The notes beneath the pieces were generated by a model. That model saw nothing but the letters and a program-made list of their open reading frames with translations. It did not search any database and was not told where the DNA came from. Of a stretch of DNA of 10,689 nt, positions 1-10,689 are shown one piece after another. Both the position numbers and the translations under genes were made by a program. Source of the stretch: Solirubrobacterales bacterium. Lineage in GTDB: Bacteria; Actinomycetota; Thermoleophilia; Solirubrobacterales; Solirubrobacteraceae. The stretch's first letter is position 1; each line of letters opens with the position of its first letter. The stretch spans positions 10,171-20,859 of the forward strand of contig PLBZ01000045.1 of the NCBI GenBank assembly GCA_003134675.1. Reading direction: 5' to 3'.

Positions 1-158
1 CCGGCGAACACGAACACCAGCGGGGTGAGGCCGAGCGCGTGGGCGGCGACGAGGCCGAGCGCGTAGTAGATCGAAGAGCCGACGTTGCCGTAGGCGGTCG
101 CGAACAGGCCGGGAACGCCGACGGAGCGGCGCAGTCCGTGTTCGGTCAAGCGTGCCAT
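1..158 (-). CDS. APC-family amino acid permease, N-terminal fragment (runs off left edge)
   Basis: Only the first 52 codons are in the window, read leftward from an ATG at 158-156. The visible protein has a short basic N-terminus (MARLTEHGLRRSVGVPGLFA) followed by a helix-breaking stretch, AYGNVGSSIYYALG, and then a hydrophobic segment. This resembles the first transmembrane helix of APC-superfamily amino acid permeases, where an unwound glycine-rich segment (here G-N-V-G-S-S) contacts the substrate. The role would be secondary uptake or exchange of amino acids or related amines at the cytoplasmic membrane. The substrate cannot be told from this fragment. A TACGCT hexamer lies 7 nt before the ATG and no Shine-Dalgarno is visible. 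The family call rests on one helix, so it is moderate. Confidence 0.62.
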   Translation of the reverse strand, partial: MARLTEHGLRRSVGVPGLFATAYGNVGSSIYYALGLVAAHALGLTPLVFVFA

Positions 159-165
159 TCAGCGC

Positions 166-171
166 AGCGTA
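166..171 (-). promoter_or_regulatory. Putative -10 box of a leaderless promoter for the permease
   Basis: Read on the minus strand, TACGCT (171 to 166) is followed by 7 nt and then the ATG at 158. This spacing would put the transcription start at or next to the A of the start codon. An overlapping TATACG (173-168) is an alternative. The -35 position falls inside the first palindrome of the 184-280 array. Confidence 0.45.
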
Positions 172-183
172 TATGTGGATAGG

Positions 184-280
184 GCCCACGCCGCATGCGG
201 CGTGGGCGGCAGGGCCGCATGCGGCCCTGCCACGGAGCCGCACATGTGCGGCTCCGCCGGGTGGCGCATGCGCCACCCGG
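184..280. repeat. Tandem array of four perfect 24-bp palindromes with CATG centres
   Basis: Four perfect inverted repeats of exactly 24 bp lie end to end: 184-207 (left arm GCCCACGCCGCA), 208-231 (GGCAGGGCCGCA), 233-256 (CGGAGCCGCACA) and 257-280 (CCGGGTGGCGCA). Each right arm is the exact reverse complement of its left arm, and only one base (232) separates any of them. The centres are GCATGC three times and ACATGT once. The outer arms differ between units but remain fully self-complementary, so the symmetry itself appears conserved rather than one copied sequence. The array lies between divergent start codons, so it is not a terminator for either neighbour. It could be extruded DNA hairpins, a multi-site operator, or a REP-like element. 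Its function is unknown. Confidence 0.93.
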
Positions 281-286
281 AACGAC

Positions 287-316
287 ATCACTTAACAGTG
301 ATTTGAGGTGTAGCCT
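287..316 (+). promoter_or_regulatory. Putative operator dyad and -10 box for the aldehyde dehydrogenase
   Basis: ATCACT-TAAC-AGTGAT at 287-302 is a perfect 6-bp inverted repeat with a 4-bp centre, typical in size for a dimeric repressor site. A TANNNT hexamer, TAGCCT, sits at 311-316, so the dyad would cover the -35 region. A second inverted repeat, TTCGTT (319-324) with AACGAA (332-337), lies in the presumed leader just before the Shine-Dalgarno. No -35 matches well, so the promoter is tentative. The dyad itself is plain in the sequence. Confidence 0.4.
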
Positions 317-348: not shown

Positions 349-1911
349 ATGGCCACCGTAGAGCAGGTATCGCAGATCCACAACGGCGTCGCGCAGGATG
401 AGGATCCCGCTCACCCTGAGATTCCCGTCGAAAACCCGGCGACGGGGGCGAGGATCGCGACAGTCCCTGATCTGAACGCTGCGGCGGTGGCTGAGCTGGC
501 CGCGCGTGCACGGATCGCGCAGCCCGGCTGGGAGGCGATCGGCTTCGAGGGTCGCGCGCGGGTGCTGTTGCGGATGCAGAAGTGGGTGATGGACAACGCG
601 GAGCAGATCGTGGCGACGATCGTCGCGGAGACCGGCAAGACCTTCGAGGATGCGCAGCTGGCGGAGATCTCCTACGGGGGCGGCGCATTCGGCTTCTGGG
701 CAAAGCGCGCCGAGAAGTACCTGGCGGATGAGCGCGTGCACTCGAGCTCGCTGTTCGTGAAGGGCAAGAAGCTGATCCTGCGCTACAAGCCGCTCGGGCT
801 GATCGGGGTGATCGGGCCGTGGAACTATCCGTTGACGAACTCGTTCGGGGACTGCATCCCGGCGCTGGCCGCGGGGAACAGCGTGATCCTCAAGCCCTCG
901 GAGATCACCCCGATGACCTCGCTGCTGCTGGCCGAGGGGCTGCGCGAGTGCGGGGTGCCGGCGGATGTGTTTCAGGTGGCGACCGGACGCGGGGAGACCG
1001 GGGCGGCGCTGATCGAGCAGGTCGACATGATCATGTTCACGGGTTCGACGAAGACCGGGCGCAGGGTCGCCGAAGCGGCGGCGCGGCGGCTGATCCCGGC
1101 CTCGCTCGAGCTGGGGGGCAAGGATCCGATGATCGTGCTGTCTGACGCGGACCTCGAGCGGGCGGCCAACACGGCGACGTACTACTCGATGCAGAATGCC
1201 GGCCAGACGTGCCTGTCGATCGAGCGGGTGTACGTCGAGGAGCCGGTGTACGAGGAGTTCGTGGCGAAGGTCACGGACAAGGTGCGGGCGTTGCGCCAGG
1301 GCAAGCCGGATGGGGGTCCGGGCACGGTCGAGGTCGGGTCGATGACGTTTCCTCCGCAGCTGGACATCGTCGAGGACCACGTCAACGATGCGCTGGCGAA
1401 GGGGGCGAGGGCGGTCGTGGGCGGTCATCGCGGCCCGGGACCGGGGCACTTCTTCGAGCCGACGGTGCTGCTGGACGTCGACCACTCGATGAAGATCATG
1501 ACCGAGGAGACGTTCGGGCCGACGTTGCCGATCATGAAGGTGCGCGACGCCGATGAGGCGGTGCGGTTGGCCAACGACTCCCCCTACGGGCTGGGCGGGT
1601 CGGTGTTCAGCAAAGACACGGCGAAGGGCGAGGAGATCGCCCGGCGGGTGGACTCCGGGGCGGTGTGTGTGAACGATGCGATCATCAACTATGTGGCGCT
1701 CGAGCTGCCGATGGGTGGCGTCAAGGCCTCGGGGTTGGGCTCCCGCCACGGCGCGGGGGGGATCCGCAAGTACTGCTCTCAGCAGGCGATCCTCGTCACA
1801 CCGCGGTTGGCGCTGAAGCGCGAGTTGCACTTCTTCCCGTACTCGCGCCGCGGAACGAAACGGCTGGGGCGGGCGCTGAAGCTGCTCTACGGCCGCGGCA
1901 AGCGCGACTGA
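349..1911 (+). CDS. NAD(P)-dependent aldehyde dehydrogenase (ALDH superfamily, GabD2-like)
   Basis: This 520-residue cytosolic enzyme should oxidise an aldehyde to its carboxylic acid with NAD(P)+. All key ALDH elements are present in order: the cofactor-fold motif GPWNY (156-160), LKPSE (181-185) with the cofactor-binding lysine K182, FTGSTKTG (230-237), the general base E254 in ELGGKDP, the nucleophile C288 in GQTCLS, and EETFGP (386-391) with E387. The length and the layout, including a basic C-terminal tail of about 30 residues (RELHFFPYSRRGTKRLGRAL...), resemble mycobacterial GabD2-type succinate-semialdehyde dehydrogenases and related broad-range enzymes. The substrate is therefore unproven. 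The ATG is preceded by AAGGGGAG (336-343) at good spacing. The gene converges on the HAD hydrolase with only 3 bp between stops. The tail may be an oligomerisation or membrane-peripheral segment (inference). Confidence 0.9.
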   Translation: MATVEQVSQIHNGVAQDEDPAHPEIPVENPATGARIATVPDLNAAAVAELAARARIAQPGWEAIGFEGRARVLLRMQKWVMDNAEQIVATIVAETGKTFEDAQLAEISYGGGAFGFWAKRAEKYLADERVHSSSLFVKGKKLILRYKPLGLIGVIGPWNYPLTNSFGDCIPALAAGNSVILKPSEITPMTSLLLAEGLRECGVPADVFQVATGRGETGAALIEQVDMIMFTGSTKTGRRVAEAAARRLIPASLELGGKDPMIVLSDADLERAANTATYYSMQNAGQTCLSIERVYVEEPVYEEFVAKVTDKVRALRQGKPDGGPGTVEVGSMTFPPQLDIVEDHVNDALAKGARAVVGGHRGPGPGHFFEPTVLLDVDHSMKIMTEETFGPTLPIMKVRDADEAVRLANDSPYGLGGSVFSKDTAKGEEIARRVDSGAVCVNDAIINYVALELPMGGVKASGLGSRHGAGGIRKYCSQQAILVTPRLALKRELHFFPYSRRGTKRLGRALKLLYGRGKRD

Positions 1912-4575: not shown

Positions 4576-4968
4576 TCAGTCGAGCTCGGCGGCGAGCATT
4601 CCCACGCGCTGCTCGATCTCATCGCGGATCGCGCGGACCTGCTCGAGCGGGCGGCCCTTGGGGTCGGGGAGGTCCCAGTCGATGTAGCGCTTACCTGGGA
4701 TGTAGGGGCAGGCGTCGCCGCAGCCCATCGTCACGATCACATCTGCCTGCTGGGCAAGCTCGGCAGTGAGGAGTTGGGGGTGGCGGTCGGACAGGTCGAT
4801 GTCGAGCTCTTGCATGACCTCTACGACCTCGGGATGGACGTGCTCGGCGGGCGTGGTGCCTGCCGAGAGAGCCGTGTGTCGCCCCGCTGCCGCACGTTCG
4901 AACAGGGCTTGGCTCATCTGCGAGCGTCCGACGTTATGCAGGCACACGAACAGAACGGTTGCCGTCAT
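4576..4968 (-). CDS. arsC: Arsenate reductase, low-molecular-weight phosphatase type
   Basis: This 130-residue cytosolic enzyme reduces arsenate to arsenite. The N-terminal P-loop, VLFVCLHNVGRSQMSQ, has the C-x5-R signature with nucleophile C9 and R15. Further cysteines C83 and C87 lie in TMGCGDACPYIPGKR, where they can relay the disulfide. The phosphatase-type acid is in DWDLPDP (D102 likely). The C83-x3-C87 spacing differs from the C82-x6-C89 pair of thioredoxin-coupled ArsC of Staphylococcus/Bacillus, so the electron donor (thioredoxin or another thiol system) is left open. The start ATG overlaps the aquaporin stop as ATGA, so the two are co-translated from the arsR-divergent promoter. It converges on fpg with a 24-bp gap in which no strong terminator is visible. 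Confidence 0.9.
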   Translation of the reverse strand: MTATVLFVCLHNVGRSQMSQALFERAAAGRHTALSAGTTPAEHVHPEVVEVMQELDIDLSDRHPQLLTAELAQQADVIVTMGCGDACPYIPGKRYIDWDLPDPKGRPLEQVRAIRDEIEQRVGMLAAELD

Positions 4969-5690
4969 GCCGGTTGCTCCTGGTAATGCGGCATGACGAC
5001 CTCTGCCGCCTCAGCCGGTGTCACATCCGGGTAGAGCACCCTCACGGCGAGGATCGCGCAGGCGCCGCCGATGAGCTGCGCGACGATGTAGCCGGGCACG
5101 GACGCGGGCGCGATGCCGGCGAAGGTGTTGGAGAACATGCGCCCGACGCTGATCGCAGGGTTGGCGAAGCTGGCCGAGCTGGTGAAGAAGTAGGCGGCGC
5201 CGATGTACGCGCCCACGGCGGCTGGGGCGGTGCTTGCGCGTTTGCTGCGGGCGAGCGAGAAGATCACGAGCAGCAGGCCGGCGGTGGCGATCGCCTCGGA
5301 GAACAGGTGTGCGCTCGTGGCGCGGTGATGGGTGGAGACGCTGATGGCGGCTAGGGAGAACATTCCGTTCGCCGCGACGGCGCCGAGGACACAGCCGGCT
5401 ACCTGCGCGGGAACGTAGGCCAGTGCGTTGCGCCAGCTGATACCTCCGAAGCTCGCGTCGGCGAGCGAGACGACGGGGTTGAAGTGCCCACCGGACACCG
5501 GGCCGAACATGAGGATGATCGTGTACAGGCCTGCTGCCGTGGCGGCGGCGTTCTCGAACAGCTGCAGGCCGACGTCGTTCGGGGAGAGCGTCTGCGCCGC
5601 GATCCCTGAGCCGATCACAAGCGCAGCCAGGAACGCCGAGCCCAACAGCTCTGCGAGCAGACGACGGGCAAGCGGAGGCGTGTTCGTCAT
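4965..5690 (-). CDS. aqpS: Aquaporin-type arsenite channel (AqpS-like)
   Basis: This 241-residue MIP-family channel has six membrane helices and both pore half-helices: GGHFNPVV (NPV at 71-73) and SFANPAISVGR (NPA at 177-179). Lying between arsR and arsC, it matches the Sinorhizobium meliloti arrangement, where AqpS replaces the ArsB/Acr3 pump. In that arrangement, arsenate reduced by ArsC leaves the cell as neutral arsenous acid down its gradient. The selectivity-filter arginine that normally follows the second NPA is I180 here, with R184 four residues later. This should widen the pore for uncharged metalloid or organic solutes. The stop overlaps the arsC start. No clear Shine-Dalgarno precedes the ATG. 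A six-codon reading frame (5707-5687) ends on ATGA over the start, which could couple translation. A glycerol or water channel is the alternative, but the neighbourhood argues for arsenic. Confidence 0.88.
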   Translation of the reverse strand: MTNTPPLARRLLAELLGSAFLAALVIGSGIAAQTLSPNDVGLQLFENAAATAAGLYTIILMFGPVSGGHFNPVVSLADASFGGISWRNALAYVPAQVAGCVLGAVAANGMFSLAAISVSTHHRATSAHLFSEAIATAGLLLVIFSLARSKRASTAPAAVGAYIGAAYFFTSSASFANPAISVGRMFSNTFAGIAPASVPGYIVAQLIGGACAILAVRVLYPDVTPAEAAEVVMPHYQEQPA

Positions 5691-5715
5691 GCCGCGACCA
5701 AGGTCATGGCGCGAA

Positions 5716-5755
5716 AGCGTATTACATTGACGAATGTGATTTCAATTGGTATATG
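5716..5755. promoter_or_regulatory. Divergent arsR/aqpS promoters with overlapping ArsR-operator-like dyads
   Basis: On the plus strand TTGACG (5727-5732), a 17-bp spacer and TATATG (5750-5755) form a promoter ending 7 nt before the arsR ATG. On the minus strand TTGAAA (5745-5740), an 18-bp spacer and TACGCT (5721-5716) could drive aqpS-arsC. Two dyads overlap both: ACATT-GACG-AATGT (5724-5737) and ATTGA-N11-TCAAT (5726-5746). A repressor bound here would block both directions, as expected for arsenite-relieved ArsR control. The promoter hexamers are good. Which dyad ArsR uses is an inference. Confidence 0.6.
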
Positions 5756-5762
5756 TAGATAG

Positions 5763-6116
5763 ATGTCCGTCGATTTGGAACTCTCCCCCAAGCAGAAGCG
5801 AGCGGCCGGTGAGCGCTGCTGCGAGCCCGTGGTCTACCCAGATGTGCAGCGCGACCACGCGCTGCGCATGGCTGAGGTCGCGAAGGCCCTCGGCGACCCG
5901 ATCCGGTTGCAGCTGGTCGATGTCCTGCACAAACATGCAGGCAAGGTCTGCGTGTGCGAGCTCGTGCCGCTGTTCGACATCTCCCAACCCACGCTCTCCC
6001 ACCACCTGAAGAAGTTGCGCGACGCGGGGATCGTGGACTCCGAGCGCCAGGGCCTGTGGGCCTACTACTACGTGATTCCCGACGCGCTGGAGGAGCTATC
6101 CGCATGGCTGAGCTGA
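5763..6116 (+). CDS. arsR: ArsR/SmtB-family arsenite-responsive repressor
   Basis: This 117-residue winged-helix dimeric repressor shows the family order: helix ALGDPIRLQLVDVL (about 42-55), the metalloid site KVCVCELVPLF with C63 and C65 at the start of the recognition region, then the DNA-reading helix SQPTLSHHLKKLRDAGIV (74-91) and the wing ERQGLWAYYYV. The CVC pair is the classical As(III)/Sb(III) site of E. coli-type ArsR. An additional cysteine pair C19/C20 near the N-terminus may supply a third thiolate. Binding of arsenite should release the operator in the 72-bp gap it shares with aqpS-arsC. The ATG follows a TATATG box by 7 nt with no Shine-Dalgarno, suggesting a leaderless message. 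bcp begins 35 bp downstream on the same strand but has its own hexamer. Confidence 0.92.
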   Translation: MSVDLELSPKQKRAAGERCCEPVVYPDVQRDHALRMAEVAKALGDPIRLQLVDVLHKHAGKVCVCELVPLFDISQPTLSHHLKKLRDAGIVDSERQGLWAYYYVIPDALEELSAWLS

Positions 6117-6139
6117 CGCGGGATCGCGGGCGAGGCGGC

Positions 6140-6145
6140 TAGGAT
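6140..6145 (+). promoter_or_regulatory. Putative -10 box upstream of bcp
   Basis: TAGGAT ends 6 nt before the ATG at 6152, the same geometry as at fpg and the flippase gene. AGGAT could also serve as a weak Shine-Dalgarno, so the assignment is uncertain. bcp could equally be read from arsR transcripts. Confidence 0.3.
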
Positions 6146-6151
6146 CCGAGC

Positions 6152-6628
6152 ATGATCGAGCAAGGAGACCGGGCTCCAGACTTCGAGCTGCCCGACCAGG
6201 ACGGGCGGGCGGTGAAGCTCTCGGACTTTCGCGGCCAGCCGGTGGTCATCTACTTTTACCCGAAGGCAGATACCCCTGGCTGTACCGTGCAGGCCTGTGG
6301 TGTGCGCGACCATCGCGCCGACTACGCGAAGGTAGGGTCGACCGTGCTGGGCATCTCCCCCGACCCGGTGGCGAAGGTGAAGAAGTTTCACGAGAAGTTC
6401 GACCTGAACTTCCCGCTGCTCGCCGACGAGGATCACGCGATTACCGAGCGCTACGGCGTCTGGGCGCAGAAGAGTATGTACGGGAAAAGTTATATGGGCG
6501 CAGAGCGAACCACGTTCATCATCGACTCAGCTGGGAAGGTCGCCGAGGTCCTGCGCAAGGTCAGGCCGGCCGAGCACGACGAGCTGGTGCTGGCAGCGCT
6601 GCAGGAGGTGAGCCCGCCGGTGGCCTAG
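6152..6628 (+). CDS. bcp: Thioredoxin-dependent peroxiredoxin, Bcp/PrxQ type
   Basis: This 158-residue cytosolic peroxidase reduces hydrogen peroxide and organic hydroperoxides. The thioredoxin fold begins GDRAPDFELPDQDG, and YFYPKADTPGCTVQACGVRD carries the peroxidatic C44 and, five residues on, C49, the usual resolving cysteine of PrxQ/Bcp on the same helix. Downstream, NFPLLADEDHAITERYGVW and the TTFIIDSAGKV strand are typical of the family, and the full length is standard. It sits between arsR (35 bp upstream) and the flippase gene (20 bp downstream) on one strand. Protection from oxidative stress caused by arsenite would fit, but the link is only positional. Confidence 0.93.
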   Translation: MIEQGDRAPDFELPDQDGRAVKLSDFRGQPVVIYFYPKADTPGCTVQACGVRDHRADYAKVGSTVLGISPDPVAKVKKFHEKFDLNFPLLADEDHAITERYGVWAQKSMYGKSYMGAERTTFIIDSAGKVAEVLRKVRPAEHDELVLAALQEVSPPVA

Positions 6629-9034: not shown

Positions 9035-9082
9035 ATCGTCTGTGCCGCTCAGGCATTGGGTGGCCATGAAGAGGAGGCTTTC

Positions 9083-9721
9083 ATGGAGGCTGCGAGGATT
9101 CAGGGTCAAGATCCAACGCGTGGTGAGGGTGAGCGCGCGCCTGTCGTAGGGGGGTGGAAACCGGCCGATCCCGGACCACTGGGGCTCGCCGCATTCGCGA
9201 TGACCACGTTTGTGCTTTCGATGTTCAACTCGAATCTCGTCGACAGCAGGGGGCTGCCGGTCGTGCTCGGCTTGGCTCTGGCCTACGGCGGGATCGTGCA
9301 GCTGCTCGCCGGCATGTGGGAGTTCCGTACCGGGAACACGTTCGGTGCGGTCGCGTTCTGCTCCTTTGGCGCCTTCTGGATCTCGTTCTGGGCCCTGAAT
9401 GTGTTCTACGCCAAGGGAATCACCGGCAACGTCGGCCATGCGGTCGGCGTGTACCTGTGGGCGTGGGCAATCTTCACCGCTTACATGACGATTGCCGCGC
9501 TGCGTGTCAGCGGGGCGGTGCTGCTCGTGTTCGTGCTGCTGACGGTCACGTTCATCCTGCTGGCGATCGGCGCCTCGGGCGCGCATGAAACGCTCACCCA
9601 CTGGGGCGGCTACCTCGGGCTCGCCACCGCTGCGGCGGCCTGGTACGCGTCGGCTGCGGCCGTTACGAACTCGACCTTTGGCCGCACGGTCATGCCCGTG
9701 ATGCCGTTGGGCAGGCGGTGA
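9083..9721 (+). CDS. satP: Acetate/succinate transporter, SatP (YaaH/GPR1/FUN34) family
   Basis: This 212-residue, six-helix inner-membrane protein should import acetate (or succinate) with protons. The family motif normally written NPAPLGL appears as DPGPLGLAAFAMTTF (29-43) at the start of helix 1. AGMWEFRTGNTFGAVAFCSFGAFW (76-99) matches the second conserved block of YaaH proteins. The N-terminal 28 residues are polar and cytoplasmic. The ATG at 9083 is chosen because AGGAGG (9072-9077) lies 5 nt upstream. An in-frame TTG at 9056 has no such support. acs follows after 141 bp on the same strand, so uptake and activation of acetate are adjacent and probably co-regulated from the inverted-repeat region upstream. 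Confidence 0.9.
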   Translation: MEAARIQGQDPTRGEGERAPVVGGWKPADPGPLGLAAFAMTTFVLSMFNSNLVDSRGLPVVLGLALAYGGIVQLLAGMWEFRTGNTFGAVAFCSFGAFWISFWALNVFYAKGITGNVGHAVGVYLWAWAIFTAYMTIAALRVSGAVLLVFVLLTVTFILLAIGASGAHETLTHWGGYLGLATAAAAWYASAAAVTNSTFGRTVMPVMPLGRR

Positions 9722-9862
9722 GATCGGCGGCGCGTGAGATCGCGCGATGAGATTGAGGTGCGCGAGACGGCACGGTGAGACGAGGAGGTGTAGAACGGTA
9801 CCCGTGTCGGATCGGGCGCTCGTCGCGGACGCGCACAACTTCGAGCAGAGAGGTCGTAGAGC
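9722..9862 (+). other. satP-acs intergenic region with short repeats and orphan Shine-Dalgarno
   Basis: This 141-bp gap holds GTGAGATCG twice (9718-9726 and 9734-9742), a related ATGAGAT copy at 9747-9753, and a perfect 10-bp palindrome, ATCGCGCGAT (9739-9748). AGGAGGTG (9783-9790) looks like a strong ribosome site, but no start codon lies 5-10 nt after it. The next GTG (9804) is 15 nt from AGGAGG, and its frame runs into acs out of phase. No convincing separate gene is seen. The acs ribosome site is GAGAGG (9848-9853). Confidence 0.4.
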
Positions 9863-10689
9863 ATGGCAACTGAACACGAGTCGGCAATCGGCGACGCGCT
9901 CGACCGCGAGCTCGCTGGGCTGCTCGATGTCGAGATGTTCGACCCGCCGGCTGAGTTTCGCGAGCGCGCGCTGCTGAGCGACCCCGCGGTCTACGAGCAG
10001 GCGGCGCGCGATCCCCAGGCATGGTGGGTCGAGCAGGCTGAGCGGCTGGATTGGTTTCAGAAGTGGGACACCGTGCTCGACGACTCCAACCCGCCGTTCT
10101 ACAAGTGGTTCACAGGCGGCAAGCTCAACGTGTCCCAGAACTGCCTCGATCGTCACGTCGAGGCGGGCCGGGGCGAGCGCGTCGCATTCCACTGGCGTGG
10201 GGAGGACGGCTCCGAGCGCGACATCACCTACGCCGAGTTGCTGGCTGAGGTCAAGCGCTTCGCCAGCGCCCTGAAGGACCTAGGCGTACGGCAGGGCGAC
10301 GTGGTGGGGATCTACCTGCCGATGATTCCCGAGGTCGTCGTCTCGATGCTCGCCTGCGCGCGCATTGGCGCCCCGCACAACGTCGTCTTCGGCGGCTTCT
10401 CCGCCGAGGCCGTGCGCGAGCGGATGGAGTTCTCCGAAGCTAAGGTCCTGATCACCGCCGACGGCGCCGCGCGCAAGGGTAAGACGGCCGCGGTGAAGGA
10501 CCGCGTCGACGAGGTGATGGGAGATCTGGCCACGCTCGAGAAGATCGTCGTCGTCAAGAGCAAGGGGACGCCTTGTGAGATGCAAGAGGGGCGCGACGTC
10601 TTCTACCACGAGATCTGTGCAGTCGCCGATCCTGAGTGCCCGGCCGAGCCGCTGGATGCCGAGCACCCGCTCTACATCCTCTACACCTC
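9863..10689 (+). CDS. acs: Acetyl-CoA synthetase (AMP-forming), N-terminal part; runs off right edge
   Basis: The visible 275 codons encode the N-terminal domain of an ACS-type adenylating enzyme, which converts acetate, ATP and CoA to acetyl-CoA, AMP and PPi. Recognisable family blocks are WFQKWDTVLDDSNPPFYKWF (64-83), the LNVSQNCLDRHVE segment (88-100), RDITYAELLAEVKRFASAL, and GIYLPMIPEVVVSMLACARIGAPHNVVFGGFSAEAVRERM (149-188). In Acs the last block is usually HSVVFGGFS. The window ends at YILYT, just where the ATP-binding TSGxTGKPKG loop should begin, so the catalytic motifs and regulatory lysine cannot be checked. The ATG at 9863 has GAGAGG 9 nt upstream and gives the usual Acs N-terminal length. 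Coupling with satP supports acetate as substrate; propionate is possible. Confidence 0.92.
   Translation, partial: MATEHESAIGDALDRELAGLLDVEMFDPPAEFRERALLSDPAVYEQAARDPQAWWVEQAERLDWFQKWDTVLDDSNPPFYKWFTGGKLNVSQNCLDRHVEAGRGERVAFHWRGEDGSERDITYAELLAEVKRFASALKDLGVRQGDVVGIYLPMIPEVVVSMLACARIGAPHNVVFGGFSAEAVRERMEFSEAKVLITADGAARKGKTAAVKDRVDEVMGDLATLEKIVVVKSKGTPCEMQEGRDVFYHEICAVADPECPAEPLDAEHPLYILYT

What the first reader, a model, noticed from the sequence alone, without database searches (positions are those of the whole stretch)
184..280. Four contiguous perfect 24-bp palindromes with differing arms but identical length and CATG centre
Each unit is exactly 24 bp, perfectly symmetric and abutting the next (periods 24, 25, 24). 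The outer arms differ from unit to unit, yet no mismatch has accumulated in 48 complementary pairs. Four perfect palindromes in a row cannot be chance. It is not one repeat amplified and then drifting, because drift would break symmetry. Something therefore restores or selects self-complementarity, for example hairpin-templated repair, selection on cruciform or RNA hairpins, or a family of related dimer sites. Its position between divergent promoters, reaching the permease -35 region, suggests a control or topological role.
Basis: seen in the sequence. Interest (0 to 1): 0.78.

Follow-up and report, generated by a model that had tools for sequence, protein, structure and literature searches.

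The report
Dispersed arrays of self-mirroring DNA hairpins
Scattered through the genomes of some soil bacteria are short stretches made of several perfect mirror-image hairpins whose letters differ from place to place and species to species while the two arms of each hairpin almost always still match, so something keeps the shape rather than the sequence.

Summary
In detail: four perfect 24-bp CATG-centred palindromes abut at 184-280. They are one copy of a dispersed family. I collected 125 distinct arrays (427 units), all from Solirubrobacteraceae-type MAGs. Of 434 neighbouring CATG centres, 396 are perfect over 11 arm pairs, although arms differ within genomes and between species. In a gapless alignment of 83 three-unit arrays, 98.4% of cells pair and 4 of 2489 are G:U. 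In 21 independent orthologous array pairs, 150 of 616 pair positions differ, 135 of them on both sides. Arrays lie a median 12.5 bp from gene 3' ends, prefer convergent gene pairs, and are present or absent at orthologous sites. A covariance model finds them in 18 of 24 genomes of the genus; the pattern finds them in four genera of the family and in none of 395 other sampled genomes of the phylum. Y1/RAYT transposase was found in 1 of 24 genus genomes, so these are not ordinary REPs. Best reading: a BIME-like multi-hairpin intergenic repeat kept symmetric at DNA level, probably by hairpin-templated (template-switch) correction, and mostly located at transcript 3' ends. Mechanism and function are inferred. 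The spreading agent and the reason for CATG are unknown.

The parts
184..207 (.). palindromic unit 1 (outer unit, arm GCCCACGCCG), perfect 24 bp
208..231 (.). palindromic unit 2 (arm GGCAGGGCCG), perfect 24 bp; a similar unit stands in the same rank in other arrays of this genome
232..232 (.). single spacer base between units 2 and 3
233..256 (.). palindromic unit 3 (arm CGGAGCCGCA), perfect 24 bp
257..280 (.). palindromic unit 4 (arm CCGGGTGGCG), perfect 24 bp, at the tail end
281..290 (+). tail AACGACATCA, a member of the AACAGCAT-like tail directly outside the last unit of many arrays
   Evidence: AAC directly outside an end in 53 of 125 arrays against 5 of 125 forty bases further out
1..159 (-). 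5' end of an amino-acid permease gene (start codon at about 157-159, reading leftwards); the rest lies left of the window
349..1911 (+). aldehyde dehydrogenase gene on the other side of the array
   Evidence: PF00171

Best explanation
The window holds one copy of a dispersed, oriented intergenic repeat of part of the Solirubrobacteraceae: usually three to six abutting perfect palindromes of about 24 bp, each a 10-bp stem on a CATG loop, often with an AACAGCAT-like tail. Shown: the family, its perfection, its divergence between species, its presence/absence at orthologous sites and its placement near gene 3' ends. Inferred: when the stretch is single-stranded during replication each unit folds, and polymerase template switching (quasipalindrome correction) copies one arm onto the other. 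A mutation in one arm is then either erased or made two-sided, so the shape is inherited while the letters drift. Arrays are mostly kept where a strong hairpin on both strands is harmless or useful, just after stop codons and between convergent genes, where they may act as two-way transcript ends or RNA stabilisers. How they spread and why the centre must be CATG are not explained.
For: 125 distinct arrays, 427 units; over arm positions 1-11 only 35 of 4697 pairs mismatch, of which 6 G:T, 5 A:C and 24 other. Of 434 neighbouring CATG centres 396 are perfect over 11 pairs and 27 have one mismatch, while none of 1538 CATGs elsewhere in the same DNA is perfect and most have 5-8 mismatches. Alignment of 83 arrays: 98.4% of cells paired against 63.6% in shuffles, 768 two-sided cells against 213, covariation 0.84 against 0.20, 4 G:U of 2489 cells. 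A structure needed only in one RNA strand should tolerate G:U, so the lack of G:U points to DNA or to both strands. In 21 independent orthologous pairs 135 two-sided and 15 one-sided differences in 616 positions; 66 of the 135 are transversions, which have no G:U intermediate. In some pairs locus-specific arms are shared while single pairs changed, e.g. L140/L227 and L040/L104. Placement: 79 of 126 distances to 3' gene ends are within 20 bp, 9 of 84 to 5' ends; convergent:divergent 34:13 against 62:103 for the other neighbouring gene pairs of the same loci. Template switching as maker and keeper of perfect stems is described in PMC8794818 (passages seen); quasipalindrome template-switch hotspots in E. 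coli in PMC7202029 (start of abstract in a listing).
Against: Differences between two perfect palindromes are two-sided by construction, so the two-sided counts restate perfection plus divergence and do not by themselves show single-event copying. Very strong selection on both strands, or replacement of whole arrays by gene conversion, could give the same end states. No within-population polymorphism was examined. The number of further pair types does not exceed shuffles, and 10 of 500 shuffles reach 30 of 30 pairs changed on both sides. Template switching does not explain the invariant CATG, the fixed 24-bp length or the dispersal. No T run follows the arrays, so classical intrinsic termination is not indicated. 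Other perfect palindromes with arms of 10 or more outside arrays exceed a first-order Markov control (18 against 3.3), but that control ignores codon structure.
Confidence: 0.5

Rival explanations
1. Selection alone: the arrays are two-way transcript ends (or RNA-protecting hairpins needed on both strands), and every mispaired variant is removed.
For: Placement near stop codons and between convergent genes; one array directly follows a tRNA-Gln gene; G:U would be A:C on the other strand, so two-strand selection also predicts few G:U.
Against: Three to six redundant 10-bp GC-rich stems should tolerate a mismatch in one of them, yet 396 of 434 centres are perfect; arrays are absent at most orthologous sites read (16 of 23, 24 of 27 and 20 of 22 rows); some sit between divergent genes; no T run; half of the two-sided changes are transversions.
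Confidence: 0.22
2. A mobile single-strand DNA element: hairpins are recognised by an unknown transposase or recombinase, and symmetry is re-made by hairpin copying at each move.
For: Dispersed, oriented, patchy in family and genus, present/absent at orthologous sites; tail sequence.
Against: No enzyme found: Y1_Tnp in 1 of 24 genus genomes, and no other transposase family was searched; no clean target duplication seen at the sites read; divergence at shared sites shows change without moving.
Confidence: 0.15
3. Clustered binding sites of a dyad-symmetric DNA-binding protein that reads YRCATGYR, a nucleoid or regulatory protein.
For: CATG is invariant in 83 of 83 arrays at all three centres; 422 of 427 unit cores are one of four symmetric YRCATGYR octamers; spacing 24-25 bp in 285 of 302 steps.
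Against: Arms outside the core vary freely in sequence but not in pairing, which site recognition does not require.
Confidence: 0.1
4. Ordinary REP/BIME elements spread by a RAYT transposase.
For: Intergenic palindromic units in clusters, many per genome.
Against: No Y1_Tnp in 23 of 24 genus genomes, including array-rich G002, G022 and G013; no GT(A/G)G head in the flank consensus; arms not conserved.
Confidence: 0.02
5. Assembly artefact or chance.
For: All array-bearing records seen are MAGs.
Against: Many independent MAGs from different studies, contigs up to 251 kb, and reversed-pattern controls at zero in all 146 family genomes.
Confidence: 0.01

Closest known systems
REP / BIME repeats with RAYT (TnpA-REP) transposases
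   Same: Short GC-rich palindromic units, clustered, intergenic, many copies per genome.
   Different: Arms not conserved in sequence but perfectly paired; units abut without spacers; no GT(A/G)G head; Y1 transposase missing in 23 of 24 genus genomes. REP traits from passages of PMC2817692 and PMC3733652.
Quasipalindrome correction / template-switch mutation
   Same: Predicts perfect stems and two-sided changes without G:U steps (PMC8794818, passages).
   Different: Known as a mutation process at single sites; here it would maintain a whole dispersed family with fixed length and loop.
Organellar palindromic hairpin repeats (Volvox organelles, sponge RHE, double-hairpin elements)
   Same: Dispersed non-coding hairpin repeats thought selfish (starts of abstracts).
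   Different: Organelles of eukaryotes; arrays of abutting CATG units with this perfection were not compared there by me.
Streptomyces telomere palindromes
   Same: Tightly packed palindromes in an actinomycete lineage (start of abstract of PMC4513846).
   Different: Those lie at replicon ends; these lie inside contigs at many sites per genome.
Intrinsic transcription terminators
   Same: GC-rich hairpins just after stop codons and between convergent genes.
   Different: Tandem, perfectly palindromic, no T run in the flanks, absent from most orthologous genes.

Membership tests
REP/BIME (RAYT-associated) | intergenic palindromic units in multiple copies | tested here: met
REP/BIME (RAYT-associated) | cognate Y1 (RAYT) transposase in the genome | tested here: not met
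   PF01797 in 1 of 24 genus genomes, not in G002, G022, G013 or G000; MAGs are incomplete
REP/BIME (RAYT-associated) | GT(A/G)G or CGTC head next to the stem | tested here: not met
   flank consensus is weak G-rich on one side and AACAGCAT-like on the other
REP/BIME (RAYT-associated) | unit sequence conserved within a genome | tested here: not met
   only the CATG centres are invariant in A1
Intrinsic terminator | GC-rich hairpin shortly after a stop codon | tested here: met
   79 of 126 distances to 3' gene ends within 20 bp, by my own simple gene caller
Intrinsic terminator | T run after the hairpin | tested here: not met
Intrinsic terminator | transcripts end there | not testable with these tools
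   no transcript data
Template-switch-maintained palindrome | near-perfect pairing with two-sided divergence and no G:U excess | tested here: met
Template-switch-maintained palindrome | two-sided change arises in one event | not testable with these tools
   needs population or mutation-accumulation data
CRISPR array | repeats separated by spacers | tested here: not met
   units abut, centre spacing 24 or 25 in 285 of 302 steps
MITE / transposon | clean empty site with target duplication | tested here: inconclusive
   presence/absence at three loci, but flanks too diverged for a base-precise empty site
Streptomyces-type telomere | location at replicon ends | tested here: not met
   many arrays per genome inside contigs
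Rfam RNA family | match to a curated family | tested here: not met
   0 matches at gathering threshold in the window

The most novel reading that the evidence does not exclude
A class of bacterial repeat whose inherited trait is secondary structure rather than sequence: a dedicated or co-opted DNA process, perhaps an unknown hairpin-acting enzyme that needs CATG at the tip, rewrites one arm from the other at each unit and also spreads the arrays.
Probability: 0.2. Interest if true: 0.9.

Novelty: new variant of a known kind. Interest (0 to 1): 0.72.

Why it matters
Compensatory evolution of stems is usually read as proof of selection on an RNA. Here hundreds of short DNA stems keep near-perfect Watson-Crick pairing on both strands while their letters diverge about as much as the flanking DNA, which makes them a natural test of whether arm-to-arm copying during replication can maintain structure. 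If so, covariation alone is weaker evidence for functional RNA than assumed. It also adds a dispersed multi-hairpin repeat, apparently without a known transposase, to a poorly studied soil lineage.

Tried and rejected
RAYT/REP: searched PF01797 in the own genome and in 24 genus genomes; rejected as the driver. Rfam: nothing in the window. Chance or artefact: rejected. RNA-only structure: disfavoured by the lack of G:U. tRNA stems as a G:U control: my two scripts did not parse the structures, so no such control exists. Substitution spectrum against flanks: flanks are mostly coding and have more G<->C changes (45% against 25% of two-sided arm changes in 86 unit pairs), so it decides little. Convergent enrichment was first tested only against gaps of 60 bp or more, which is biased; repeated without that filter it holds, 34:13 against 62:103, p about 3e-5. 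The AAC tail frequencies are inflated because I used AAC to orient arrays; the unbiased count is 53 of 125 against 5 of 125. Dropped before counts: units failing 7 of 8 inner and 8 of 12 total pairs; the effect was measured (8 further CATG neighbours with 3-6 mismatches). Unit pairing comes from my own ordered matching and may pair wrong units. Literature: nine searches listed no paper whose title or shown abstract describes these arrays; subscription papers are mostly not held.

Full report
Observation. The four units at 184-207, 208-231, 233-256 and 257-280 are exact 24-bp palindromes with one extra base at 232. About 0.002 such palindromes are expected in the window. They fold as four separate hairpins.

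A dispersed family. The window is G000:C23:10171-20859 of a 1.43-Mb, 67%-complete MAG. Arrays of the same kind were read at eleven places in that genome: C3, C9, C19, C23, C27, C28, C35, C41, C43, C44 and C68. A three-centre pattern found 27 of 146 genomes of the family, with the reversed control at zero in all 146. The match in one genome (G069) is not palindromic by eye, leaving 26 genomes in four genera: 17 of 24 in the own genus, 2 of 4, 1 of 16 and 6 of 28 in the others. A covariance model found 18 of 24 genus genomes; G001, G005, G008, G015, G017 and G020 had none. In an even sample of the phylum only the own genome of 396 had the pattern. Contig lengths show that genus member G006 is isolate palsa_744; that this is GTDB genus Palsa-744 is recalled, not looked up.

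Perfection. 125 distinct arrays hold 427 units; 350 are perfect over 12 pairs, and over positions 1-11 there are 35 mismatches in 4697 pairs (6 G:T, 5 A:C, 24 other). Because that set used a pairing criterion, I counted every CATG 22-27 bp from a unit: 396 of 434 perfect over 11 pairs, 27 with one mismatch, 11 with more; 0 of 1538 distant CATGs are perfect. Seventeen further stretches fetched from model hits gave 51 palindromes with arms of 8 or more, 48 with arms of 11 or more, centres CATG in 50 and TATA in 1; a few broken units lie beside them.

Covariation. A gapless 83 x 72 alignment pairs in 98.4% of cells, with 768 two-sided cells against 213 in shuffles, a score of 0.84 against 0.20, and sharp loss when slid by one column; 4 of 2489 cells are G:U. 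The number of further pair types is not above shuffles, and 30 of 30 pairs changed on both sides is reached by 10 of 500 shuffles.

Orthologous sites. 47 array pairs have homologous DNA on both sides; 290 two-sided and 35 one-sided differences in 1364 positions. Using each array once: 21 pairs, 135 two-sided, 15 one-sided, 466 unchanged, 66 of the 135 transversions. Two perfect palindromes can only differ two-sidedly, so the informative fact is that they diverged, at about 22-24% of positions beside flanks of 71-89% identity, and stayed perfect. Shared locus-specific arms in L140/L227 and L040/L104 argue for change in place.

Presence and absence. After an acyl-CoA dehydrogenase gene 7 of 23 genomes have an array, the rest not within the stretch read; one (G021) is cut by a contig end. 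Upstream of the permease 3 of 27 gene copies read have one: the window, a second copy in G000 (C44) and G013. At a third site 2 of 22 have one and G021 keeps a degenerate CATG remnant.

Placement. With a simple codon-based gene caller: 58 co-directional, 34 convergent, 13 divergent, 13 inside called frames, 7 at edges; 3' gene ends at a median 12.5 bp (79 of 126 within 20), 5' ends at 61.5 bp (9 of 84 within 20). Convergent:divergent is 34:13 against 62:103 for the other neighbouring pairs of the same loci. The window's own array, in a divergent promoter region, is therefore atypical.

Polarity. AAC stands directly outside one end in 53 of 125 arrays (both ends in 3) against 5 of 125 forty bases out; with arrays so oriented the tail reads AACAGCAT and the other side is weakly GGGAA. 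Unit ranks have their own loose consensus.

Mechanism. Lack of G:U argues for DNA or two-strand pairing; redundancy of units argues against selection being able to keep every pair. Template switching between arms is the known process that fits (PMC8794818, passages). It does not explain CATG, length or spread. Y1 transposase is absent from 23 of 24 genus genomes. I therefore hold the family, perfection and divergence as shown, the copying mechanism as likely (about one in two), and a 3'-end role as plausible.

Literature. Nine searches listed nothing describing such arrays. Passages of PMC3733652, PMC2817692, PMC12306157, PMC13155455 and PMC8794818 were seen; no paper was read whole. In PMC12306157 and PMC13155455 the searched terms gave no mention of Solirubrobacter.

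Noticed in passing
G000:C23 (window 1-280) and L014 (G000:C44) 1435-1774: Two copies of the permease 5' region, about 94% identical over 158 bp, share an array next to the start codon but have different DNA beyond it, so the array lies at a rearrangement junction.
   Followed up: partly
window 287-303: Inverted repeat ATCACT-TAAC-AGTGAT between the array and the aldehyde dehydrogenase gene, possibly an operator.
   Followed up: no
permease upstream regions of L177-L203: A conserved TGCA-N8-TGCA inverted repeat stands upstream of the permease in relatives; the arrays of G013 and G000:C44 sit directly beside it.
   Followed up: no
L107 3430-3501 and L076 3570-3642: Two arrays of one MAG (fen_676) carry nearly the same three units in opposite order but the same AACAGC tail, as if the array had flipped inside its frame.
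   Followed up: no
L275 (G007:C181), third unit: A unit whose left arm is of one type and right arm of another (three mismatches), as if two units had recombined at CATG.
   Followed up: no
L009 625-648, L012 1001-1024 and 16 others listed: Perfect palindromes with arms of 10 or more outside arrays are more frequent than a simple Markov control (18 against 3.3), with other centres.
   Followed up: no
L009 1355-1446: One array begins about 19 bp after a tRNA-Gln gene.
   Followed up: no
window 4576-6628: Aquaporin-type channel, low-molecular-weight phosphatase/arsenate-reductase-like protein, ArsR-type regulator and a peroxiredoxin side by side; looks like an arsenic-type cluster.
   Followed up: partly
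window 9056-10687: GPR1/FUN34/YaaH transporter next to an acetyl-CoA synthetase gene.
   Followed up: partly
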